Shown here in pieces: positions 902 through 13,736 of a stretch of 64,000 bases of DNA. The position numbers and the translations under genes are program-made. The notes beneath the pieces are model-generated. The model was not told the origin of the DNA and did no database searches. It was given only the letters and a program-made list of their open reading frames with translations. Positions within the stretch are counted from its first letter, which is position 1, and the number at the start of each line of letters is the position of its first letter. Source of the DNA: Bythopirellula goksoeyrii (GTDB lineage Bacteria; Planctomycetota; Planctomycetia; Pirellulales; Lacipirellulaceae); assembly GCF_008065115.1 (NCBI RefSeq), contig NZ_CP042913.1, positions 6,087,257 through 6,151,256 on the forward strand. The letters are read 5' to 3'.

Positions 902-1795
902 ATGACCCAAACCAACAATCGACAACTTGTTGTCTCGGGAAGCAGTCAGCAATTAGTCACCAAAGCTGGTAGTTCTCACATATCCAGAAACCCAAACTAC
1001 GACGAACCGGAACTCGATTACGGTGGAGGTGGTCAACCGTTAGTTCTCAAAGGTCGACGCCCCAAACCATTGCCGAAAGGCCCAAGAAGAAAATGCGTCG
1101 GGCACCGCTCAGCCGCAGAGGGCCGCAAGCAACTGGTCATCTTCGCAGTAGACGATTCTGCTTCGATGAAGCGGTTTGAAAAATGCTTGGCTGCTTTAGA
1201 GGCAATGGTAGAAACCCTCTACCAGATGGTGCTCAAAGGCAACGGTGTTTCAGTCTTCGATGTCGCTATCTTCAAATACGGTGACAAGGTCTTTGCCGTT
1301 CAAGAGAATCTTTTAGTGCCCGTGGATGAAGTCGATGAAGACACCTTCGTTTTTCAAGGAAACTCAGGTGGTACGAAGATTAAACTGGCCATGGGATTTG
1401 TCGAAGACCTTCTCGTCACTTATGACCAAGATGTTCTTGCTCACAACGAGGACCCGGAGCGTGTCCCACCACCATTAGTGGTGTTGATAAGCGATGGCTA
1501 CAACGGCGATGGAAATCCCAGACCGGTTGCCGCTCGCATCAAAGAGATGCCCCTCTCAATAGGCGTCTCTCCCATCATTGCCACGGTCGGCATTGAGTAT
1601 GGCGGTGGTGAACCTCATGTCGAGTTGATGACGGATATCGCCAGCAAAGACGAACGCGGAAAGCCTCTGTATTTCGATATCCAGAATGCTGGGGAACTAG
1701 CCGACGTTCTCGCGACCTTGGGAAGTTCTGCAGCGACGTCTGCGACCACGCTTTATCAAGCGACTAAGAACCAAGAAAAGGGGGCAAACCAATAG
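902..1795 (+). CDS. vWA-domain protein, TerY-like member of a vWA/PP2C/kinase triad
   Basis: A 297-residue protein with a von Willebrand A domain from about 78 to 275. The metal-ion-dependent adhesion site is complete: DDSAS at 84-88, the threonine at 158 in SGGT, and SDG at 197-199. The first 75 residues are a low-complexity basic leader. There is no signal peptide or membrane segment, so it should be cytoplasmic. AGGAG lies 8 bases before the ATG. Its stop overlaps the GTG of the phosphatase gene by one base, and the kinase gene follows with another overlap. This is the order and coupling of TerY-P modules, which join vWA proteins with a PP2C phosphatase and a kinase and have been linked to stress response and phage defence. 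Confidence 0.85.
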   Translation: MTQTNNRQLVVSGSSQQLVTKAGSSHISRNPNYDEPELDYGGGGQPLVLKGRRPKPLPKGPRRKCVGHRSAAEGRKQLVIFAVDDSASMKRFEKCLAALEAMVETLYQMVLKGNGVSVFDVAIFKYGDKVFAVQENLLVPVDEVDEDTFVFQGNSGGTKIKLAMGFVEDLLVTYDQDVLAHNEDPERVPPPLVVLISDGYNGDGNPRPVAARIKEMPLSIGVSPIIATVGIEYGGGEPHVELMTDIASKDERGKPLYFDIQNAGELADVLATLGSSAATSATTLYQATKNQEKGANQ

Positions 1796-2655
1796 TGATT
1801 GCTCCTCCGAAACCTGCTGACCGTCTCAGTCGATTGCTCAAGCACTACGCACTGCAATTTGGTGAGAGACTTGCACGTGCTGGCTCTCTCTACGAGTCTC
1901 ACGGACATATTGAGTGCAACGAGTTTGGTATTTCGACTGCAAGTGAAGCAGGTGGAAGGAGGAACAATCAAGATGCGTCCTTGATTTGGATACCGCAGCA
2001 GCCCTCGCCAGTGCGTTGGGCTGCTGCGATTTCCGATGGTGTAAGAACTTCTATTCAATCGGAACACGGTAGCCAACTCGCCTGCTATGCGGCTCTAACC
2101 GTGCTGTTGCAAAGCTACCAACAAGAGAAAGAACCGAATGCTCAGCCAATCGAACAATGCCTGAAATACTTTTCCAAGCTGGGGACTAAAGTAGGCGAGT
2201 ATGCCGACCACCTCCGCCCAGAAATGCTCAGTAAGGGAAACTGGAAGCGGGTGCTTCGAGATGGGCGATTCGCTCAAACCACACTAATGGTTGCATGGGA
2301 AGATGACCGTGGGCTGACTATCGAGGGTATTGGCGATGGTGGTTACATCCTCAATATCGATGGGCCTTCACTAAGTTATTTGCCGTCTTCAGACGGTCCC
2401 GTGAATTGCCTGAGTCCTAGCGGTGTTTGTCTTCGCCGCGACTTCCGCATTGAAGTCCAACACTGGGAAAGTCTCGCTCTGTTTACTGACGGCGTGACCC
2501 CAGCCGTATCGATGGAAGGTCTGATTGTTCCAACGAATGCTGCCAAGGAAGAGAACCTGGCGTCTAGCACGCTGGATAACTATCTCAGCGTCTACCCACA
2601 CCTCATTGATGACAACGTTACTTTACTTACTGCAGCACGGAGGCACCAGCAATGA
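1795..2655 (+). CDS. PP2C-family serine/threonine phosphatase of the triad
   Basis: A 286-residue protein with the PP2C metal-binding pattern: RRNNQD at 55-60, SDG at 80-82, GDGG at 180-183 and TDG at 231-233. The family removes phosphate from serine or threonine using two metal ions. It starts with GTG, overlapping the vWA stop by one base, and ends in an ATGA overlap with the kinase gene, so the three are almost certainly translated together. No membrane segment or signal peptide is present. The neighbouring kinase suggests that the two enzymes act in opposition on shared substrates, which is an inference. Confidence 0.85.
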   Translation: MIAPPKPADRLSRLLKHYALQFGERLARAGSLYESHGHIECNEFGISTASEAGGRRNNQDASLIWIPQQPSPVRWAAAISDGVRTSIQSEHGSQLACYAALTVLLQSYQQEKEPNAQPIEQCLKYFSKLGTKVGEYADHLRPEMLSKGNWKRVLRDGRFAQTTLMVAWEDDRGLTIEGIGDGGYILNIDGPSLSYLPSSDGPVNCLSPSGVCLRRDFRIEVQHWESLALFTDGVTPAVSMEGLIVPTNAAKEENLASSTLDNYLSVYPHLIDDNVTLLTAARRHQQ

Positions 2656-3665
2656 GCTATCCCGTCATCACTCCAGGCGAAGCAAGAGTCTTGGCAAACA
2701 AGACATGGACGCTCGGCGATAGAGAGTTTCGCTTCGGTGAAAGACCTATGCTGGGCAGCGAAGCGTTTGTCTATCCGCTCTATGACTCCGATGAACAGCT
2801 TGTCGCCTTCGTGCGGTTTTCTTTACGCGTTTTAACGCCAGAACGTCTGCAACGCACGCAGTGGCTCATTGGTCAGAGACTCGATGAAAAGACACCAGTT
2901 TTCAAAGCGGCACCCTACTCATGGCTGAGTACGTTTCAGCAAGGGCGGCCGGATGGAGTCAGCATTGATTTCGTCGCTACGCTGCACGCCGCTGTGCGGG
3001 GTGAGAGTTGGCGTGCAATAAAACGTCGCTGTGACAACGAGCAAAAACTGCCATTGATGAAGAAACGGATAGCGGCAGCAAAACAATTGATTTCACACCT
3101 AGCAATTCTTGAGTCCATTGGCAGGCACGGCTTTATCCACGGCGACGTCTCCGATGGCAACTTCATGATAGACCTTGCAACTGGTGAGGCCTACCTCATC
3201 GACTTTGATGCATTTATCTACACCACTTCCGACACTTTGAAGTTTCCTCGTCTCAGTTTCGAAGCAGGGGGCGTCAAAGGAACCATCGGTTACATGCCGC
3301 CCGAATTGGAAGAGAGCACAGCGGGTGAGGCGTTTCCATTCTCCGACCGATATGCCCGCGACATGTTGCTGATAGAGCTACTTGGTTTTCAGTTGGGTGA
3401 CCCAATTGATGCTTCTCCAAAATTTTGGGAAGAGCCAGGGCTTACACAGCAGAAGCTCCAAAAAAACTGTCGCGAATTGAGTCTCACCCACCTGTTACGC
3501 CCCGATGTATTTGAGCTTCCTGAAAAACACCGACCGTGCAGTCGTGAATTGGCAGTCAAAGCTCAATGCCAGATGCCCGATTGCAAAATCCAACTCGCTC
3601 CGTTCACCGTCAAGGTGCCAGAGAGTTCAAAGCCCGTGGTGCTTCGTGAAAGAAAAGCCAAATGA
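2652..3665 (+). CDS. Protein-kinase-fold protein of the triad
   Basis: A 337-residue kinase-like protein. The catalytic loop reads HGDVSDGN at 163-170 and the metal loop DFD at 184-186. GTIGYMPPE further on matches the activation-segment end. Near the N-terminus a glycine-rich loop (LGSEAF) is followed by VAFVRF at 51-56, where arginine stands in place of the usual ATP-binding lysine, so phosphate transfer may be weak or the lysine is supplied elsewhere. It overlaps the phosphatase stop by ATGA and the next gene's start in the same way. The C-terminal 60 residues contain two CxxxxC-like cysteines and could form a small extra domain. The start at 2652 is fixed by the overlap. Confidence 0.85.
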   Translation: MSYPVITPGEARVLANKTWTLGDREFRFGERPMLGSEAFVYPLYDSDEQLVAFVRFSLRVLTPERLQRTQWLIGQRLDEKTPVFKAAPYSWLSTFQQGRPDGVSIDFVATLHAAVRGESWRAIKRRCDNEQKLPLMKKRIAAAKQLISHLAILESIGRHGFIHGDVSDGNFMIDLATGEAYLIDFDAFIYTTSDTLKFPRLSFEAGGVKGTIGYMPPELEESTAGEAFPFSDRYARDMLLIELLGFQLGDPIDASPKFWEEPGLTQQKLQKNCRELSLTHLLRPDVFELPEKHRPCSRELAVKAQCQMPDCKIQLAPFTVKVPESSKPVVLRERKAK

Positions 3666-4162
3666 ATCAAGACCCACTCAATGCATGCCCGGTCGAGCCA
3701 GTGACGCGTCGTGAGCGAACTGCAACTACCTCTAGCAGCTCTCAAACAAAACATCGGGACACACCTACTGCTGCAAAATATCCAACGAAGAAGAAACGAG
3801 ATAAGCGGAAGCGAAATAGCTCTGCCGCTGCAGCTCGCATACGACGAAGAAAAACCTCAGCAACCAAGGCAACTCTAAACACGGCCACGCCTTCACCGCT
3901 GCCATTGGCCCCAGTTGAAGAACTGAGTATCCGCAAAGCCGTGTGGAAGAAGTTTCGTGATGATAAAGAACTCGACACGCTTCTATCGAATCTCTTTTGC
4001 ATAGTGGTGCTGGCGTTACTTGCTTGGCTACACGATGCCTTCTGGATTATTCCTGCCATCATTTGGCTCGCGTTTTTTGTGATAGCCGTCCCTGCCTGGT
4101 TCTTGATTCATACCATCGAAGAATTCTTCAAAAGGCGAAAGGTCTCACGTCATGCGAAATAG
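3662..4162 (+). CDS. Membrane protein with basic Ser/Thr-rich tail, copy 1
   Basis: A 166-residue protein with no named family. Residues 1-85 are polar, basic and rich in serine and threonine, including KKKRDKRKRNSS and RIRRRKTSATK. Two adjacent hydrophobic segments lie at about 106-124 and 126-150, predicting a membrane hairpin with the long tail in the cytoplasm. It overlaps the kinase stop by ATGA. The first 40 residues and the block before the first membrane segment (SPLPLAP, then ELSI) are repeated in the protein starting at 4460, so the pair is a tandem duplication whose membrane halves have diverged. As the product coupled to a kinase, the tail is a plausible phosphorylation target; this is inference. 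Confidence 0.75.
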   Translation: MNQDPLNACPVEPVTRRERTATTSSSSQTKHRDTPTAAKYPTKKKRDKRKRNSSAAAARIRRRKTSATKATLNTATPSPLPLAPVEELSIRKAVWKKFRDDKELDTLLSNLFCIVVLALLAWLHDAFWIIPAIIWLAFFVIAVPAWFLIHTIEEFFKRRKVSRHAK

Positions 4163-4379
4163 AAACGACAGCGTCAAACAACGTGACATCTTCAACAACC
4201 CGATAGTCACCTTCTTTTTAAATTGCTTCGTGCTCACCGCCACAACGAACGCTGTTTTGGAGAAAGGCCTTTTCGCTGGTCTGTTGATTCACTGTGCCTT
4301 CATCGTCTGCTGGAGAGTTTGCGTGCAGGTGACACGAGATTGGACGGCTGGGCGAAAGGGGGCTGAACGTGGGAAGTGA
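4152..4379 (+). CDS. Small membrane protein in the triad operon
   Basis: A 75-residue protein overlapping the end of the previous gene by 11 bases. Two hydrophobic stretches at about 18-32 and 40-57 suggest a membrane hairpin; the ends are basic. No family is recognised. It lies between the two duplicated membrane proteins, and its own hairpin may be a third version of the same membrane module without the Ser/Thr-rich tail. Coding is supported by overlap and hydrophobic pattern only. Confidence 0.5.
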   Translation: MRNRNDSVKQRDIFNNPIVTFFLNCFVLTATTNAVLEKGLFAGLLIHCAFIVCWRVCVQVTRDWTAGRKGAERGK

Positions 4380-4459
4380 ACTTCGCCAACACCAGACGCA
4401 ATTCAGCAAGCCCTTTGCCCATTCTTACTGGCAGGTCTCGGCCATGAATGGAGTTTCAA

Positions 4460-4987
4460 ATGACCACAAAATCAGACTCTTCCCGTACCTCATCAAGCCG
4501 CCAAACGGCCTCAGTAAGTAACTCAATGAATCAAGACCCACTCAATGCATGCCCCGTCGAGCCAGTGACTCGTCGTGAAGGAACTGCAACTACGTCTAGC
4601 ACTCTTGAAACTAAACGCCGGGACACACCTACTGCAAAACAAACAACGAAGAAGCGGAAGCGAAGTAACTCAGCGACCAAGTCAACTCTAAACACGGTCC
4701 CGACTTCGCCGCTGCCATTGGCCCCTGTTAAAGAACTGAGTATTTGCAAAGTTGCGTGGAACAAAATGGAAAATAGTGAAACTTCTCCCACATTTGAAAC
4801 ATGGCTCTTTGTCATACACGCTTCGATACAGGCAATGGTGTTGCCACGTGCTTGGCCATTCGAAAACATCTGGGTTCTTATCGGCACCGTCTTACTCGTG
4901 ATGTTATTGACATGCATGCCTGTCTATTACGTTCTTCGTGTCGTGGAAGAGTACGTCGCAAGGAGACGTAGGCGACGACAAAACTAA
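4460..4987 (+). CDS. Membrane protein with basic Ser/Thr-rich tail, copy 2
   Basis: A 175-residue protein. GGAG at 4450-4453 with six bases of spacing sets the start at 4460, not the ATG at 4448. After 22 extra Ser/Thr-rich residues the sequence restarts as MNQDPLNACPVEPVTRRE, matching copy 1 nearly base for base (3662 onward against 4526 onward). The tail is again basic, with KKRKRSNS. Two hydrophobic segments at about 117-135 and 138-160 form the predicted hairpin, but their sequence differs from copy 1. The C-terminus is a run of arginines. Duplication with divergent membrane parts suggests hetero-oligomeric partners or differing sensors. Confidence 0.75.
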   Translation: MTTKSDSSRTSSSRQTASVSNSMNQDPLNACPVEPVTRREGTATTSSTLETKRRDTPTAKQTTKKRKRSNSATKSTLNTVPTSPLPLAPVKELSICKVAWNKMENSETSPTFETWLFVIHASIQAMVLPRAWPFENIWVLIGTVLLVMLLTCMPVYYVLRVVEEYVARRRRRRQN

Positions 4988-5041
4988 TCGATTTGGACTA
5001 CAGAATCAAAACACAGCCTAGGCCATGATTGGAGTTTGAGA

Positions 5042-5677
5042 ATGAGCAGTGAGCTGACCAGCAATGACCTCGACCTGATGAACGTATCGGTCACCTGCGT
5101 GACGCAATTTACGTCGTCATTTGCCAAAAGGTATTGGCAGGTTTCGAGTATCGCCGCCAAAAGGCGACTTGAAAAGCTCGAACGCAAAGGGCTTCTCAGG
5201 AGTCGCAGTGTGTTGGCCGCCACTCCGCCACCCATCCACGGGCCACTGTGCGTGTTCAAGCCTGAGCAAGAGATTCCGCATACTGCTGGCCGGGTCAGTT
5301 ACCAAGCCCGTCAAAGATGGAAGTCTATACCCGTTGTGGTCAATCGCGTGTACTTCGCAACCGATTTAGGACGCGGGCTCCTGGGCAGACCCCCAATAAA
5401 GCCCCCCCGAGATATCCAGGCCACACATGATTTAGGCCTATCGGATGTCTACCTTGCTTACAGACAACGATGGCCAAAACTCACCGCCAGGTGTTGGCTC
5501 AATGAATCGGAATACGCCCATCACCGCGGACACTGCGTCAAAGTCGAGGACGCCATGCTCTGCCGCAACCACCAAGTTTTACTAATGGTCGACTACGCCG
5601 GAGCATATAGACCAGATAGGGTAAAAGACCTGATGTGTCACGCACAAGAACACAATGTCCCCATAGCAATTTATTAG
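5042..5677 (+). CDS. Winged-helix, replication-relaxation/MobC-like protein 1
   Basis: A 211-residue protein. The N-terminal 55 residues look like a winged helix (SSIAAKRRLEKLERKGLL). The later pattern HDLGLSDVY (H129), VEDAML (169-172) and LMVDYAG (D184) matches my memory of the replication-relaxation family, which includes MOBC-type relaxases with a nuclease-like fold. GGAG at 5031-5034 gives the start at 5042, and the leader around 5021-5045 resembles the one before 4460. It sits four bases before a second protein of similar design and just upstream of a coupling ATPase, as expected for a mobilization module. Function as the relaxase is inferred. Confidence 0.6.
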   Translation: MSSELTSNDLDLMNVSVTCVTQFTSSFAKRYWQVSSIAAKRRLEKLERKGLLRSRSVLAATPPPIHGPLCVFKPEQEIPHTAGRVSYQARQRWKSIPVVVNRVYFATDLGRGLLGRPPIKPPRDIQATHDLGLSDVYLAYRQRWPKLTARCWLNESEYAHHRGHCVKVEDAMLCRNHQVLLMVDYAGAYRPDRVKDLMCHAQEHNVPIAIY

Positions 5678-5681
5678 CCCA

Positions 5682-6380
5682 ATGATTACCAATACCCACC
5701 TTCCAGAGCCAGATTTGGCTCACGAACGCACCAACAAGATGATTCGATTCCTCCTCCGGAATCATGTCGGTACAAATTCTTCCATGCTCCGGATACTGTT
5801 TCCGGGCATGAACCCGGCGACTGTCCAGAAACTCATTCTCCGAGCTATTCGACGGGGCTTACTGAAACGATGGCCATTGCATTCGAGTAGAACCTATTTG
5901 CGACTTGGCCAAGCAGCGATTGCACGTTGGCAGTACCCGAAAAAGTACTCCCGAAGACTCGGTCCGCAAATACTGCCGTACCATCTGGGTTGCTTATCGC
6001 TCACCACGCTCAAAAAAGAGACCCCTAAAAGGCTGCTGCCTTCTGAACTAGAGGCATACTTTCCAGGCTTTCCCCAGACCAACGAATTGCAGCAATGGGC
6101 CTACTATCTCGACAGCTCAACAGGCGTAGACCGCCTTGCCACTATACGCGTCGAATATCGCGTTGGTGGATTCGCAGTCATTAATAGAGTTGCTGAGCAA
6201 TTCCATAGTTATCGCCAGCATGACTGCATCAATGAGCTGCTCGATAGCGGCCGCTTCATCTTGCACGTCGTCACAGCCACGCCTCAACAAGAAGAATCTC
6301 TCTGGGATGCTGCTGAGCATCTCGCTTTTCCCGCCCCGCTGGAAACGTCTCATGACACCAGCCTGACCATGTTTCTCTAA
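5682..6380 (+). CDS. Winged-helix, replication-relaxation-like protein 2
   Basis: A 232-residue protein, likely a paralogue in design of the preceding gene. The first 75 residues carry a winged-helix pattern (LLRNHVGTNSSMLRILFPG, then VQKLILRAIRRGLL). The C-terminal part, with RLATIRVEYRVGG at about 150 and RFILHVVTATPQQEESL near the end, fits the core of the same nuclease-like domain, with the acidic residue E in RVEY. Neither a classical HUH histidine cluster nor a tyrosine relaxase motif is seen. It is four bases after the previous gene and nine before the coupling ATPase, so the three are probably one transcript. Confidence 0.55.
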   Translation: MITNTHLPEPDLAHERTNKMIRFLLRNHVGTNSSMLRILFPGMNPATVQKLILRAIRRGLLKRWPLHSSRTYLRLGQAAIARWQYPKKYSRRLGPQILPYHLGCLSLTTLKKETPKRLLPSELEAYFPGFPQTNELQQWAYYLDSSTGVDRLATIRVEYRVGGFAVINRVAEQFHSYRQHDCINELLDSGRFILHVVTATPQQEESLWDAAEHLAFPAPLETSHDTSLTMFL

Positions 6381-6389
6381 GGAGATACG

Positions 6390-8717
6390 ATGAGCAAACT
6401 AGACCTCTACCGCACCCCCGCCAACGACAATCCAACTCAACCGGAGAAGTTGCCAAAGGAACCGCTGGACTTCCAGTTTCCCATCACAACCAAGCCGGGT
6501 GCTCCTTTTACACTTCGCAGTTTTCTATTCCGCTTAGCACTCGTTTCATTGTTTGGATTCGTCGCACCACTCTCTCTACTCTACGACGCTTACCTTGTTG
6601 GCCTCGTTTCTTTGTGTCTACTAATTAGCTACGTCCACCGCACCTACAAACGCGTGGGCACCAAAGTAGCGGGCAAACTTTTTACGGCCTACTTGATTGC
6701 CCATTTTTCATGCTTCCTCTCCTTCAACGGGTTTGGAGGCTTCGTAACGCTCATGTTTTTCGGCACCGTTGCCTACACACTGCACGTTGCTAGAAAATTT
6801 CGCTTGCATTGGAATCAGCGAGCTGCCTGCGGAATGCTACCCAGAACTGATATCAAAGAGTTTCTTCAATCTGGCAAACTACCTGCCGGTGTGAAATCCA
6901 AACCAACGCTCCCGGCGTTTGCCGCAGCGTTACGAAGCTGGATTACCTACGACCCGTTTAACAGCCAAGCAGCAGGGGTGTTCAAATGCTCAATGGGCGA
7001 AGCACAGAACCGAGTCGCAGCGTCTCTTTCGCTAGCCGTGCTTTGGGCCGGAGTGTTAGTAACCCCTCAAGCTCTGTCTTGGATAAGGCTACTTGGCAAC
7101 CCGGTTATCTTTTGGCCGCTTGCTCTCGTTACCATTCCCTTCGCACTTCCCTTGCTGTCGATGTTCTTATCGGCCGGAGCAAGTCTCGGCAAAGCACATG
7201 GGATTATCGAGCACCAATTCGATCCCAAGAATTGGACGCCGTTCATTCGCGATTTGCAAACCTCCAAGAACAGCGTTGTCCGCAACAGTATCTTTCTCGG
7301 CCGCGTACATGGAGACGGCTCGCCAATTCTCTATCCGGCAGAACGCCTGATGCGAGGTGGGTGGATTCAAGGCTCGCCAGGCTCAGGCAAGACACTCTCC
7401 TTGATGCAGACGCAAGAGCAACTCATTGAGCTTGGTTATTCGGTCGTCGTGCTCGATTTAAAAGCTTCTAGCTTCGAGTTGATGTATTCAGCACACGCCG
7501 CCGCTCAGAGAGTGCGTCAGCAACAGGGTCGAAACGTTCCCATCTATCCGTTCACGTCCGTTTGCGGCAAAGCCAGCTACTTGTTGGACATCTACTCGCA
7601 GAAGTTTTGGTCGGCACGTTCTCCCGAAGAGAAAGCTAGTATCATGCTCGGTTTCTTTGGCCTCAATGGAGCACAGGTCTACGGGGAGTCCTGGTATCGC
7701 GATGCGGCTTGGACGGTGAAACAGCATTTGACTTCCAAATACCAAAATCTCAAGAGCTTTCATGAGGCGGCTCAGCGGCTTGGCGAAGAGTTGGAATACG
7801 CCAAGCCTTGGGAGCTTTCTCGTCAAGTCAAGCAGGATGGTGAGCATCCACGATTGATTCTCAATCGCCTCGGCATGCTCGATGCTCTCAATGCTCGGTC
7901 AGGTTACTCTCAAAAAATTCTCGATAGAGCCATTAACCTCGTACAGCTATTCCAAACTCCAAGCGTTCTGTATTGCGGCCTGCCATCGATTACTGACCCC
8001 GTGGGAAATCCTGAAGTCGGTCGGGTGATTCTTTCATCGCTGCTTGCGACTGCCACGCATACGCAGCATCGCCCTGTGAGAGTCGTGGTCCTGATCGACG
8101 AGTTCCAACGCATGGTTTCTCGCTCACTTGACATAATCCTCCAGCAGGCCCGGTCTAGAGGTGTCGGTGTCATTCTTACCAACCAGAGTTCTGCGGACCT
8201 ACGGGCTGTTGACCAAAACATGCCGGACACCATAGCAGGGAATACAGCCTTCCAGGCGTGGATTAAGGCAACCGACAATATTGGCGTAGACCAGGTTCGC
8301 AACTTCGGTGGCCAGTACATCGAGCACCTCTATTCGACAACTGTTTCATCATCCCAGAACGGACCGCAAACGAGTCGCACTACTAGCGAACATGTTCTCG
8401 ACCGCGTCTCGACAGGTCTGATTGACCGGGTGAATGCTTCTCATGACCAATACTTTTTAAGAATCTCCGACGATGGCGGATACGCCGCTTACGGCAGTCA
8501 GCTCTTCATCGCGCAGTCGGGCTACCACACGGCCACCGAGCAAGAATACAACGACCGCATGACGCGTCCGTGGCCTGATGCCGTGCCAGGCATGCTGGTA
8601 AACGGTGAACATCGTCCGTCGAAAGGACCGACCAACAAAGACCTGGTAGGACGCGACAGGCCTAATCCCACGTCATCGCGGAAGCGAAAGACGACCCCCT
8701 TAAATCCACCCAGATAA
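6390..8717 (+). CDS. Type IV coupling protein (VirD4/TraG/TraD-like ATPase)
   Basis: A 775-residue protein, typical in size for a coupling protein, which links the relaxase-DNA complex to a secretion channel and pumps DNA. Several hydrophobic segments lie at about 40-140 and again at 210-275. The ATPase domain has Walker A GSPGSGKT at 328-335 and Walker B VVVLIDE at 565-571, followed by a QxxSRGVG-type stretch and TNQSS (sensor region). GGAG precedes the ATG by about five bases. The proline- and arginine-rich C-terminal tail may contact the relaxase. It is the best evidence that the element moves by conjugation. No VirB4 or other channel gene is near it. Confidence 0.88.
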   Translation: MSKLDLYRTPANDNPTQPEKLPKEPLDFQFPITTKPGAPFTLRSFLFRLALVSLFGFVAPLSLLYDAYLVGLVSLCLLISYVHRTYKRVGTKVAGKLFTAYLIAHFSCFLSFNGFGGFVTLMFFGTVAYTLHVARKFRLHWNQRAACGMLPRTDIKEFLQSGKLPAGVKSKPTLPAFAAALRSWITYDPFNSQAAGVFKCSMGEAQNRVAASLSLAVLWAGVLVTPQALSWIRLLGNPVIFWPLALVTIPFALPLLSMFLSAGASLGKAHGIIEHQFDPKNWTPFIRDLQTSKNSVVRNSIFLGRVHGDGSPILYPAERLMRGGWIQGSPGSGKTLSLMQTQEQLIELGYSVVVLDLKASSFELMYSAHAAAQRVRQQQGRNVPIYPFTSVCGKASYLLDIYSQKFWSARSPEEKASIMLGFFGLNGAQVYGESWYRDAAWTVKQHLTSKYQNLKSFHEAAQRLGEELEYAKPWELSRQVKQDGEHPRLILNRLGMLDALNARSGYSQKILDRAINLVQLFQTPSVLYCGLPSITDPVGNPEVGRVILSSLLATATHTQHRPVRVVVLIDEFQRMVSRSLDIILQQARSRGVGVILTNQSSADLRAVDQNMPDTIAGNTAFQAWIKATDNIGVDQVRNFGGQYIEHLYSTTVSSSQNGPQTSRTTSEHVLDRVSTGLIDRVNASHDQYFLRISDDGGYAAYGSQLFIAQSGYHTATEQEYNDRMTRPWPDAVPGMLVNGEHRPSKGPTNKDLVGRDRPNPTSSRKRKTTPLNPPR

Positions 8718-9966: not shown

Positions 9967-11349
9967 ATGGCTAGCATTTATAAGAAGAAACGCGACAAGG
10001 GAAAGAAGAATGCCTCTTGGTACGTAAATTACACGGACCATCTTGGAAAGAGGCGGACTGTAAAAGGATTCACTGACCGACGGGCAACCGAGCAGATGGC
10101 TGCCAAGGTGGAGCATGATGTCATGCTCCGCAAACGCGGTCTGATTGACCCGGAGAAAGAGCGTAGGCTTCAAGTTCAGGCGAGCAGTCTTGAGAAGCAT
10201 ATCCAGGACTTCGAGAAGAGTCTCAGTGACAATACGCCTAAGCACGTGAAACTGACCATTTCGCGGATACGCTGCGTGGTCGATGGATGTAAGTTTGAGA
10301 CTGTCGCGGACCTTGAACCGGATGCGGTAGTAGTTTTTTTGCGAGACTACTGCAAGAGCAAGAATCTTGGTCGAAAGACGTACAATCACTACGTGCAGGC
10401 CATCGACAGCTTTTGCAATTGGATGCTACTCACGAAGCGGATTGGGAGCAATCCACTTTTAGGACTGGAACGTCTAAATGCAGAAGTGGACGTACGCAAG
10501 AAGCGGCGAGCGCTCACCGCCGATGAGATAGCTTTGCTGGTAGAGTCTGCCCGCCAAAGTGGCATTGAGATTCAATGCTACGACGGGGAAACCCGAGCAC
10601 GAATTTACCTTCTCGCGTACTTCACCGGACTTCGTCGGCAAGAATTGGCAAGTCTGAGCCGTGAAAACTTCAATCTCGATACCGATCAGCCAACACTTAA
10701 AGTCGAAGCTGCCTGCTCGAAGCATCGACGCGAAGACGTACTCCCATTACATCCCGACCTAGTCAATATGCTTCGCGAATGGCTCCAGGAATATGACGAG
10801 AACGATCCACTGTTCCCGCACTTGGCTAAACGCCGTACCTGGAAGATGGTCAAGCTCGACCTGGAGAGGGTAGGGATTCCCTACAACACGGCTGAAGGAG
10901 TTGCTGACTTTCATGCTGCTGGTCGTCATACCTACATCACCGAGTTACTTCGCAACGGGGTCTCGTTGGTTGAGGCCCGCGAGCTGGCCCGGCACAGTGA
11001 TGTTCGGATGACGATGAAGTACACCCACATCGGCCTGGGCGATCAGGCAGAGGCACTGAAGAAACTCAAAGGGGTCACGGTCGAGCAGTCGGAAGCCGGG
11101 GACTCTGGCGACCCGCAAAATGGGTCGACAGAAAAGTGTCCACGTTCTGGCCACGCGCCAGTGGACTCTGCCTGTCAAAATGTGGCAACTGGTGGCAATG
11201 GGAAGTGTTCGCCACTAAACGACGAAACCCCTGCCGCTGACAGGGGTTATCATCAAAATTCGTCGTCTGACAACAGTTGTCAAAAGTGGAGGCGGCGGGA
11301 ATTGAACCCGCGTCCCGACATAGCTCCACGCAAGCTTCTACGTGTGTAG
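9967..11349 (+). CDS. Tyrosine-family site-specific integrase
   Basis: A 460-residue recombinase that joins and excises the element. The N-terminal part is a SAM-like DNA-binding region. The catalytic domain shows Arg-223 in TGLRRQEL, His-316 and Arg-320 in FHAAGRHT, LARHSD at about 338, and the nucleophile Tyr-352 in MKYTHIG. In most of the family histidine and arginine are three apart (HxxR); here the gap is four, a form I recall from other planctomycete integrases. Residues beyond about 375 are low in conservation. The last 20 or so (WRRRELNPRPD) are simply the tmRNA 3' end read on the other strand, so the frame was probably changed by integration. Confidence 0.9.
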   Translation: MASIYKKKRDKGKKNASWYVNYTDHLGKRRTVKGFTDRRATEQMAAKVEHDVMLRKRGLIDPEKERRLQVQASSLEKHIQDFEKSLSDNTPKHVKLTISRIRCVVDGCKFETVADLEPDAVVVFLRDYCKSKNLGRKTYNHYVQAIDSFCNWMLLTKRIGSNPLLGLERLNAEVDVRKKRRALTADEIALLVESARQSGIEIQCYDGETRARIYLLAYFTGLRRQELASLSRENFNLDTDQPTLKVEAACSKHRREDVLPLHPDLVNMLREWLQEYDENDPLFPHLAKRRTWKMVKLDLERVGIPYNTAEGVADFHAAGRHTYITELLRNGVSLVEARELARHSDVRMTMKYTHIGLGDQAEALKKLKGVTVEQSEAGDSGDPQNGSTEKCPRSGHAPVDSACQNVATGGNGKCSPLNDETPAADRGYHQNSSSDNSCQKWRRRELNPRPDIAPRKLLRV

Positions 11350-11642
11350 CCGACTGATTTAATTTCACTTGCGGGTCACCCAGTCGACCAGGTTACCTGC
11401 TTGCTAGCCAAGAACTTTTTTAACTGCGAACGTACCCGGCAGTGACTCGCAGCGGTTCGGATTTGGTGACGGACGTCCGGGCCAATCCGACTTCAGCCCT
11501 TAGTCCGGGCGCCTTTATTTAGGCAGCCAAAGCGTAATTGCCATTGGCAATTGACATTGTGATCAGCTTTTTACGTGGCCCACTGATCAACCACGACACG
11601 CGACTTACGCTTCATCTACCCGGTCGAACCCAGTTCGCCCCC
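11287..11642 (-). ncRNA. ssrA: Transfer-messenger RNA (tmRNA)
   Basis: The 5' end GGGGGCGAACTGGGTTCGAC and the 3' end with GGGTTCAATTCCCGCCGCCTCC form the tRNA-like part, with a seven-pair acceptor stem and discriminator A at 11287. CCA is not encoded; the genome continues CTT. The tag frame ends at 11519-11521 (TAA) and its last residues are ANGNYALAA, close to the usual alanine-rich proteolysis tag. The exact resume codon is not certain. tmRNA rescues stalled ribosomes and marks the unfinished protein. The 3' end serves as attachment site for the element to the left. Confidence 0.93.
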
Positions 11643-12280: not shown

Positions 12281-13351
12281 TCACTTGGCGGACTGATGGT
12301 GCGGGCTTTCGGCGTAGTGCCGCTGCAGATAGTCGGCGCCGAAATTGTTGTCCGGGGAATGCCACACCAAGTGAGCGTGATTGGCGTTGTTCTGGGTGTT
12401 GTCATATTCAATGACTAGGGTCGGACCGTGAATGCGAAAATAATGGCCCTTTCCCACTTCCACGCTTCCCGCCCAGGCGAAGTGCAACTTGTCGAAACCG
12501 GCGTCCTCCAGTTCATCCAGCGCACGCTCTCTTAATTCTGCGTTGAAGTTGCCGATAATTTCATCGAGAAGGTTTCGCAGCAGCGCTTGCTGGGCGTCGG
12601 TCATTTCCTCGGCGCTGAGTCCTTCGGGCTCGCCGAAGTTAATTTCAACGCCGGGCAGCGCAATCACATCCCCTGGAGCCGTTTCGGCGATCATCGCCGT
12701 CTTGAGTTGTGCAGGGGTACAACTGGTGATCAGGTCACGGGCCAAATCTTCTTCGGTGCCCAGCACACGCAGCCCCGCGCGGGGTCCGTCGCGCAGCTCT
12801 GCCGGGTTCGTGCCAAAGAAGGCGGGAGTGACCGAGACGACTTGCCCCGTGACCGAGGAAAAGTTGAGCGACAAATGGTGCCCTTCAATGCGCCAGCCCC
12901 ACGGCTCGTCGGAACTCGGATCACCAAACAAAGCGAACCAATAGCGCTCGGGATCGCGAACATTTTGAGCATTGGGACGACTGGCTTCCAACCGACGCAA
13001 ATCTTCGTCCAAAGACATGATCGCGAGTGCTTTGAAATAACCCTGGCTACTGAGCGCGATTCGCAACAAGTTGTGTGCCGCCCGCCGCTGCTCCAGATTC
13101 ATGTCGTGCCAATTCACTCCTAGCCGATCCTTGGGAACAAAATGCCAATCGGTCCGCACGGGTCCCGCAAACTCAAAGCTCGCTTGCCTGGTCAACTCGG
13201 GCCCTAAGGTAGAGCGCCACGCCAATACGGCCTGGCGCATGGCATCGCTATCGACCACAACCACGGGCTCATGGGCCTCATGGGCATCAGCAACGATGGC
13301 AACAAAGCAGGTCGCTAGAAAAACACAACTGATCATGATGAGGGTTTTCAA
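12281..13351 (-). CDS. Secreted DUF3500 family protein
   Basis: A 356-residue protein of the DUF3500 family, whose biochemical role is unknown. It covers nearly the whole length with family landmarks such as RYWFALFGDPS, WGWRIEGHHLSLNF and HAHLVWHSPDNNFG. GGAG at 13359-13362 lies seven bases before a TTG at 13351, which I take as the start. It gives the signal peptide MKTLIMISCVFLATCFVA; an ATG at 13336 is the alternative. The gene stands alone on the minus strand and is bracketed by two direct repeats of about 240 bases, so it may have been acquired or duplicated as a unit. Confidence 0.8.
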   Translation of the reverse strand: MKTLIMISCVFLATCFVAIVADAHEAHEPVVVVDSDAMRQAVLAWRSTLGPELTRQASFEFAGPVRTDWHFVPKDRLGVNWHDMNLEQRRAAHNLLRIALSSQGYFKALAIMSLDEDLRRLEASRPNAQNVRDPERYWFALFGDPSSDEPWGWRIEGHHLSLNFSSVTGQVVSVTPAFFGTNPAELRDGPRAGLRVLGTEEDLARDLITSCTPAQLKTAMIAETAPGDVIALPGVEINFGEPEGLSAEEMTDAQQALLRNLLDEIIGNFNAELRERALDELEDAGFDKLHFAWAGSVEVGKGHYFRIHGPTLVIEYDNTQNNANHAHLVWHSPDNNFGADYLQRHYAESPHHQSAK

Positions 13352-13736
13352 GGCAGGACTCCAGACAGAATGAGTTGAGAAAGGATGGGGGGGAATGGTG
13401 GTTGGTGGATGCTGGATGGTGAGGCGGATCATGCGCGCGGAGGTTGGGCCAGGGATGCTTCGCCTTTTTGAAAATTTGTGCGCGTTCGTTTTTTTATTAT
13501 TTAATTACCTCCTTCGCCGCCGGTTCGAATCGCTTCAACTCGTTGGTGGGACAAGATTTACGAAGCTGTCGACGTCTTCTTTCCGGGGGAGTTTTGTAAA
13601 GCAATATTCTTCGCATGGGCTCTCTATCGTACTCCGCTGCAGTCGGATTGGGGACAGGGAATTCACGGAACGGATGTGCTTGCAGCCATCAATCGAAATC
13701 TAAGCGCTTGACTCCCGGCTCGCAGTTTACCTAACC
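13352..13736. other. Intergenic stretch, no gene seen
   Basis: Between the DUF3500 start and repeat B. It contains G-rich GGTTGGTGGATG-type low-complexity sequence, and an AT-rich patch around 13485-13510. A GGTTCGAATC at 13531-13540 resembles a tRNA T-arm, but no other tRNA parts are near it. Confidence 0.5.

What the first reader, a model, noticed from the sequence alone, without database searches (positions are those of the whole stretch)
902..4987. TerY-P-like vWA/PP2C/kinase triad joined to membrane proteins on a mobile element
Three overlapping genes give a vWA protein with complete metal site, a PP2C phosphatase and a kinase with HGDVSDGN and DFD. Vertical overlaps (1, 4 and 4 bases) continue into a membrane protein. 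The vWA/PP2C/kinase (TerY-P) architecture is known from tellurite-type stress neighbourhoods and phage defence. Here it lacks other Ter genes and has its own membrane proteins, which could be a variant that senses at the membrane. Location in an integrated element fits a defence or competition cargo.
Basis: partly seen in the sequence, partly recalled or inferred. Interest (0 to 1): 0.75.

Follow-up and report, generated by a model that had tools for sequence, protein, structure and literature searches.

The report
Membrane-linked bacterial phosphorylation switch operon
A small operon on a mobile DNA element in a planctomycete bacterium encodes a metal-binding protein, a phosphatase, a kinase and separate membrane proteins; in relatives the membrane part is usually fused to the kinase, so it looks like a membrane-tethered version of a known on/off signalling module, possibly used against phages.

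Summary
Window 902-4162 is a tightly coupled operon: vWA with complete MIDAS, PP2C, kinase with HGDVSDGN and DFD, and a two-TM protein, overlapping by 1, 4 and 4 bases. A tandemly duplicated membrane gene follows at 4526-4987. Six other vWA-PP2C-kinase triads of this family were found, in planctomycetes. In five, the kinase gene itself continues into 1-3 hydrophobic segments; in the sixth, such segments lie in the +1 frame. The separate membrane gene here is best read as the split-off tail of a membrane-anchored kinase. E. coli YegL-PphC-YegI has the same gene set, order and membrane tether, but only weak sequence similarity.
The operon does not meet the TerY-P definition tested: TerY model E=0.006 only, and no OB-fold or zinc ribbon found on the kinase. 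It sits in a 39.3-kb element in ssrA with type I RM plus PrrC, a McrBC-like pair and IetAS-like genes, so defence cargo is plausible. But of five relatives whose neighbours were partly scanned, one has a defence effector nearby. The window kinase has Arg at the usual ATP-binding Lys, so its activity is uncertain. Verdict: a new, split and membrane-tethered variant of a known triad; defence is inferred.

The parts
902..1795 (+). vWA protein, 297 aa, complete MIDAS (D84-S86-S88/T158/D198); about 70 residues precede the point where the relatives' assigned starts lie
   Evidence: AGGAG before the ATG. L042's frame stays open upstream of its assigned start, L043's does not
1795..2655 (+). PP2C phosphatase, 286 aa, metal-site motifs intact, GTG start
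2652..3665 (+). kinase-fold protein, 337 aa; HGDVSDGN and DFD; Arg55 at the usual Lys; no hydrophobic segment
3662..4162 (+). membrane protein 1: basic Ser/Thr-rich N-terminal tail (about 100 aa), then two hydrophobic segments (106-124, 126-144)
4152..4379 (+). small hydrophobic ORF, 75 aa, two hydrophobic segments; existence as a gene uncertain
   Evidence: codon score 0.017, between the 95% and 99% points of the null
4526..4987 (+). membrane protein 2 (longer start at 4448 possible): tandem duplicate of membrane protein 1 with conserved tail and diverged membrane part
   Evidence: codon score within the null
5036..8717 (+). two small genes (213 and 232 aa, no Pfam family above cut-off) and a TraG/TraD-like ATPase: probable transfer module 48 bases downstream of the operon; context, not part of the switch
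9967..11349 (+). tyrosine recombinase (integrase) of the element, its end overlapping the ssrA 3' end; context
   Evidence: Phage_integrase E=1.7e-19
11286..11306 (+). right end of the element: the ssrA 3' end; the left copy is outside the window at genome 6059219-6059239; context

Best explanation
This is a membrane-tethered vWA-PP2C-kinase switch. Proposed working: the kinase is held at the inner membrane by the coupled two-TM protein, whose basic Ser/Thr-rich cytoplasmic tail takes the place of the linker that joins kinase and TM segments in relatives. The vWA protein acts as a Mg-dependent docking or adaptor subunit and the PP2C resets the phosphorylation state. A signal at the membrane, such as phage entry or envelope stress, shifts the kinase/phosphatase balance and changes the membrane protein or another target. 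Shown: gene set, order, overlaps, motifs, hydrophobic segments inside the kinase gene of relatives, tandem duplication of the membrane gene, and location on an element with other defence genes. Inferred: a physical complex, tail phosphorylation, membrane sensing, a defence role.
For: Same triad order in seven of seven loci. Predicted TM segments after the kinase domain inside the kinase gene of five of six relatives (L040 3, L041 1, L042 3, L048 1, L050 3), and hydrophobic stretches in the +1 frame of the sixth, L043. The window kinase has none, and a two-TM gene overlaps its stop by 4 bases. The two membrane genes share the tail (76% aa identity, dN 0.138, dS 0.331) but hardly the membrane part (22%). 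E. coli yegL-pphC-yegI has the same order and YegI has three predicted TM segments; a 2026 paper states that YegI is membrane-bound and dephosphorylated by PphC (PMC13232886, passages seen). The element carries HsdMSR with PrrC (PADLOC 7e-136), a McrBC-like pair (Pfam McrBC 3.3e-38) and IetAS-like genes. TerY-P protects P. aeruginosa PAO1 from phage with most cells surviving (PMC10889362, passages seen).
Against: Arg55 replaces the Lys of the six relatives, so the kinase may be weak or inactive. Homology between the split membrane gene and the fused TM tails is not shown; neither membrane protein has a tblastn hit in 115 held loci, so the case rests on position and architecture. In a partial scan of ten neighbour proteins from five relatives, only L040 gave a defence effector (SspH). 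No effector of the operon is evident. The second membrane gene's codon score lies inside the non-coding null.
Confidence: 0.5

Rival explanations
1. A general envelope- or stress-signalling operon of the YegI-PphC-YegL kind, picked up by the element, with no role in phage defence.
For: The neighbours scanned for L042, L043 and L050 are WD40/PDZ, TPR, WYL-regulator or unknown proteins rather than defence effectors; the passages seen on YegI and PphC name no defence role.
Against: The window copy is on an element with at least three defence systems and the G400 copy is on a contig with SspH; the distribution is very patchy (4 of 397 class genomes with a full-length-type match, own included, plus one degenerate hit).
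Confidence: 0.28
2. The operon serves the element itself, for example by regulating its transfer machinery: it lies directly upstream of a TraG/TraD-like module.
For: Only 48 bases separate membrane gene 2 from the two small genes that precede the TraG-like ATPase.
Against: No vWA or PP2C hit near TraG relatives in L088-L091 (6-18 kb each), although relatives of the 5036 gene are there in three of the four (L089-L091); no TraG hit in the DNA held for the six triad relatives.
Confidence: 0.12
3. A decaying operon: the kinase lost its ATP-binding Lys, the kinase-membrane fusion broke, and a fragment was duplicated.
For: Arg55; split gene; codon score of membrane gene 2 within the null.
Against: The frames are open, overlaps are tight, MIDAS, PP2C and the other kinase motifs are intact, and the duplicated tail shows dN/dS of about 0.42 over 80 codons.
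Confidence: 0.1

Closest known systems
TerY-P triad (TerY-like vWA, PP2C, Ser/Thr kinase with C-terminal zinc ribbon or OB-fold; description from passages of PMC11090510)
   Same: Same three enzyme types adjacent in one operon; mobile or defence context; complete MIDAS.
   Different: No zinc ribbon or OB-fold found on the kinase; instead a membrane part, here encoded separately; only weak matches to the PADLOC TerY and STK_OB models.
E. coli yegL-pphC(yegK)-yegI
   Same: Same gene set and order; the kinase is membrane-bound with TM segments after the kinase domain; atypical kinase motifs.
   Different: Profile comparisons are weak (E 9.7e-6 vWA, 3.3e-4 PP2C, 1e-4 kinase); YegI is longer, with a further C-terminal region; K-12 has yegJ between pphC and yegI; no defence gene in the 12 kb read.
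Kinase-containing defence proteins (PD-T4-6, Mad6, MkoA, PglW models of PADLOC)
   Same: Kinase core matches: window best 6.1e-8 (PD-T4-6); family best 7.1e-11 (MkoA).
   Different: For the window protein the matched stretch is the catalytic core; such matches are expected of any kinase-fold protein and imply no vWA-PP2C pairing.

Membership tests
TerY-P defence system | vWA, PP2C and kinase genes adjacent in one operon | tested here: met
TerY-P defence system | vWA matches the TerY model | tested here: inconclusive
   E=0.006 for the window protein; 3 of 7 family members at E<=0.01, best 1.9e-4
TerY-P defence system | kinase carries a C-terminal zinc ribbon or OB-fold (from passages of PMC11090510) | tested here: not met
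   None of the 11 Pfam families matched at E<=0.1 by the 7 kinases is such a domain; in the window protein STK_OB matches only residues 146-188 (4 of 7 members match that model, stretches of the other three not shown); the window kinase has three Cys after residue 290, at 296, 306 and 311
TerY-P defence system | protects against phage | not testable with these tools
   needs an experiment
Yeg-type membrane kinase triad | order vWA, PP2C, kinase | tested here: met
Yeg-type membrane kinase triad | TM segments in the kinase protein after the kinase domain | tested here: not met
   None in the window kinase; two in the overlapping next gene; present in the kinase gene of five of six relatives
Yeg-type membrane kinase triad | sequence homology of the three proteins beyond their superfamilies | tested here: inconclusive
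   weak profile matches only
Integrative element in ssrA | integrase next to ssrA and direct repeats of the ssrA 3' end at both ends | tested here: met
   the repeat pattern (up to one mismatch) occurs exactly twice in the 6.47-Mb genome, backwards control 0; homology to sister genome G507 begins at 11285; left end not confirmed by synteny

The most novel reading that the evidence does not exclude
A split-kinase immune or stress receptor: a TerY-P-like switch whose membrane sensor has become a separate, tandemly duplicated and diversifying subunit. The conserved Ser/Thr-rich tail docks to the kinase and phosphatase, while the membrane hairpins are replaced or evolve fast to recognise different membrane signals.
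Probability: 0.2. Interest if true: 0.68.

Novelty: new variant of a known kind. Interest (0 to 1): 0.48.

Why it matters
TerY-P triads protect against phages (PMC10889362), and the passages I saw do not say what they sense. A family in which the kinase's C-terminal zinc ribbon or OB-fold is replaced by membrane segments, split off here as separate genes, suggests that the C-terminal part chooses where the switch listens. It would also link the E. coli YegI/PphC pair, for which no inducing condition has been defined (PMC13232886), to a wider membrane-tethered class.

Tried and rejected
A tellurite-resistance reading: no TerB/C/D-type Pfam family appeared among the 20 element proteins scanned (one search lists up to E=1, up to 0.001); the remaining ORFs of the element were not scanned. 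Viral or plasmid carriage: two viral-contig scans confirmed no relative, and tblastn of the kinase in the plasmid and phage collections gave no match at E<=1e-3. Proof of the left end by synteny: the neighbour gene at window 12281-13432 lies elsewhere in G507 and G434, with no tmRNA in the 19.5 kb fetched around it; the 17.6 kb left of ssrA in G507 have no blastn match to the left flank. Sister elements: TraG-like relatives in 12 of 195 other genomes of the order sample are 24-35% identical, and L088-L091 show no vWA, PP2C or triad-kinase hit. Homology of the split membrane gene to the fused TM tails could not be shown; no structure of the membrane proteins was predicted (one of two structure jobs left unused).

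Rows dropped before the family was counted. Order search: of 73 genomes with a hit at E<=1e-5, own, G400 and G525 were kept; the other 70 are short kinase-core matches (best 1.5e-9). Genome-contig scan: 19 of 25 loci (E 4e-8 or weaker); of these only L052 was read. Class search: G778 (L044), a kinase-like protein without HGD and DFD and without the other two genes nearby. Phylum profile search: G051 and G107; only the flanks of G051 were read. As a check, tblastn of the window vWA and PP2C at E<=1e-4 against 115 held loci hit only loci of the six relatives; most dropped loci from the order search hold only about 1.5 kb on each side, and dropped genomes without a fetched locus were not checked.
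Full report
What is there. Six open frames run in one direction from 902 to 4987. The first four overlap by 1, 4 and 4 bases. Pfam names the first two as vWA and PP2C; the third is a kinase-fold protein that passes the APH cut-off and falls below the Pkinase cut-off. The structure prediction of the kinase is fair (mean pLDDT 80.2, pTM 0.82, seven-sequence alignment), and Foldseek returns eukaryotic protein kinases, AAK1 first, at E 3.6e-10 and a query TM-score of 0.55. Motifs: MIDAS complete in the vWA; PP2C metal motifs invariant in the seven aligned sequences; HGDVSDGN and DFD in the kinase. One departure: Arg55 stands on the predicted strand 50-57 where the six relatives have Lys. That this is the ATP-binding Lys site is read from the alignment and from general knowledge of kinases, not measured.

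Where it is. The window is G000 C1:6087257-6151256 of a 6,473,141-base contig. G400, placed in the same order as G000, has the contig of a record titled Pirellulales bacterium (same length of 33,897 bases, 100% match), so the host very probably belongs to the Pirellulales. The operon lies in an element of about 39.3 kb integrated at the 3' end of ssrA: tmRNA at 11286-11642, integrase at 9967-11349, and a 19-bp exact repeat. The 21-base pattern with one free position, up to one mismatch, occurs exactly twice in the whole genome, at 6059219 and 6098542, on the same strand, with no match of the backwards control. Homology with the sister genome G507 starts at 11285, at the repeat. The left end rests on the repeat alone.

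Company on the element. Scanned with Pfam and PADLOC: HsdM, HsdS, PrrC (E=7e-136) and HsdR in that order; an ArdC-like protein; an AAA protein followed by a McrBC-family protein (Pfam 3.3e-38; no PADLOC hit for the latter); IetA- and IetS-like genes (5.2e-72 and 2.3e-34); a replication initiator (Pfam RPA). A TraG/TraD-like ATPase lies at 6390-8717. So the operon travels with at least three defence systems. Twenty proteins of the element were scanned with both libraries; its other ORFs were not.

Relatives. In 396 genomes sampled from the order, 73 had a kinase hit at E<=1e-5; besides the window's own only G400 (6.1e-45) and G525 (6.6e-42) match over most of the protein. In 397 genomes of the class a profile found five at E<=1e-15: own, G400, G837, G990 and G778, the last a degenerate kinase. 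A scan of the genome-contig collection (one genome for each of 84,980 species) gave 25 loci, six of them strong (L046-L051, E<=3e-51), of which L048 and L050 were new. In 392 genomes of the phylum sample a seven-row profile found own plus two weaker kinase hits. The genome-contig scan relies on two exact short patterns and may miss members. Five of the six record titles name planctomycetes; the sixth (L051, the G837 contig) is titled bacterium, but G837 is placed in the window's class. The six relatives (L040, L041, L042, L043, L048, L050) carry vWA, PP2C and kinase side by side in the same order; in L041 the vWA is cut by the contig end. Identity to the window proteins is 31-35% for the kinase, 29-34% for the vWA and 25-28% for PP2C. 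The window vWA and PP2C hit no other of 115 held loci at E<=1e-4.

The membrane part. With a plain hydropathy scan (19-residue window, threshold 1.5), the kinase proteins of L040, L041, L042, L048 and L050 have 3, 1, 3, 1 and 3 hydrophobic segments after the kinase domain (L048 also one borderline stretch near its start); YegI has three. L043's kinase frame has none, but the +1 frame just beyond shows hydrophobic stretches: an assembly error or a real break. The window kinase has none, and the overlapping gene 3662-4162 has two. The simplest account is that a kinase-linker-TM protein was split between kinase and linker, with the 4-base overlap keeping the two coupled. The linkers of the relatives are 11-20% Ser/Thr and 3-16% Lys/Arg; the tails of membrane proteins 1 and 2 are 22% and 28% Ser/Thr and 25% and 17% Lys/Arg, so the likeness is one of kind, not degree. 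No sequence homology of the tails could be shown, and neither membrane protein hits any of the 115 loci.

The duplication. Gene 4526-4987 repeats gene 3662-4162: 81% over 144 nt and 83% over 103 nt. The aligned tail (80 codons) is 76% identical in amino acids with dN 0.138 and dS 0.331; the membrane part (68 codons) is 22% identical, and the change comes at about codon 90. That fits either replacement or fast divergence of the membrane part. Against it, the codon-usage score of gene 2 (-0.091) lies within the out-of-frame null (95% point -0.020), while membrane gene 1 (0.049) lies above the 99% point (0.026); the score is a weak instrument, since the PP2C gene reaches only 0.029 and the 5036 gene -0.082.

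How it most likely works. The best-supported picture is a membrane-tethered kinase/phosphatase switch with a vWA adaptor. That defence is its use is inference from its company on the element and from TerY-P, which protects PAO1 with most cells surviving, some death being seen (PMC10889362, passages seen). Against it, among ten neighbour proteins chosen from L040, L041, L042, L043 and L050, only L040 gave a defence effector (SspH); L041 and L050 gave CRISPR-associated regulator models, the WYL protein of L050 also a Cas3c model; L042 and L043 gave none. L048's neighbours were not scanned. This is not an enrichment test.

Comparison with the known. The TerY-P description (vWA, PP2C, kinase with zinc ribbon; OB-fold in stand-alone defence forms) is taken from passages of PMC11090510. 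The window fails the kinase C-terminal feature and is borderline on the TerY model, so I do not file it as TerY-P; it may work like one. E. coli yegL-pphC-yegI shares order and membrane tether, with weak profile similarity. The papers on YegI and PphC themselves were not held; what I say about them comes from passages of PMC13232886. Paper searches for TerY-P with vWA and PP2C, for YegI/YegK/YegL, for TerY with vWA, for TerY-P with defence, for TerY with transmembrane, for IetAS/TerY-P/PrrC and for Planctomycetes with TerY listed no title on a membrane-type triad in planctomycetes (titles and abstract starts seen, cut to five rows), and the library lacks most subscription journals.

Noticed in passing
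genome 6061243-6068281 (L071:987-8025): HsdM-HsdS-PrrC-HsdR in one row: a PrrC-type anticodon-nuclease guard within type I restriction genes on a planctomycete element.
   Followed up: partly
L071:13850-17314: AAA ATPase and subtilase pair matching the IetAS defence models on the same element.
   Followed up: partly
window 5036-6380: Two small proteins without a Pfam family above cut-off; relatives of the first lie beside TraG-like genes in other genomes, twice in each of L089-L091.
   Followed up: partly
G526 C20:14421, G562 C33:187302, G495 C29:16613: Extra 25-26-bp copies of the ssrA 3' end in three same-genus genomes, suggesting that ssrA is a common integration site there.
   Followed up: no
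L042:1143-2909 and L043:4199-5956: A look-alike protein of unknown family (588 and 585 aa; likeness judged by eye) lies just upstream of the triad in G837 and G990.
   Followed up: no
L044:8165-9430: A kinase-like protein with one hydrophobic segment that lacks the HGD and DFD motifs and has no vWA or PP2C beside it: a possible pseudokinase relative.
   Followed up: no
L087 and L040:1-2661: The G400 contig carries large ATPase-like genes (by eye) and an SspH gene about 14 kb from its triad.
   Followed up: partly
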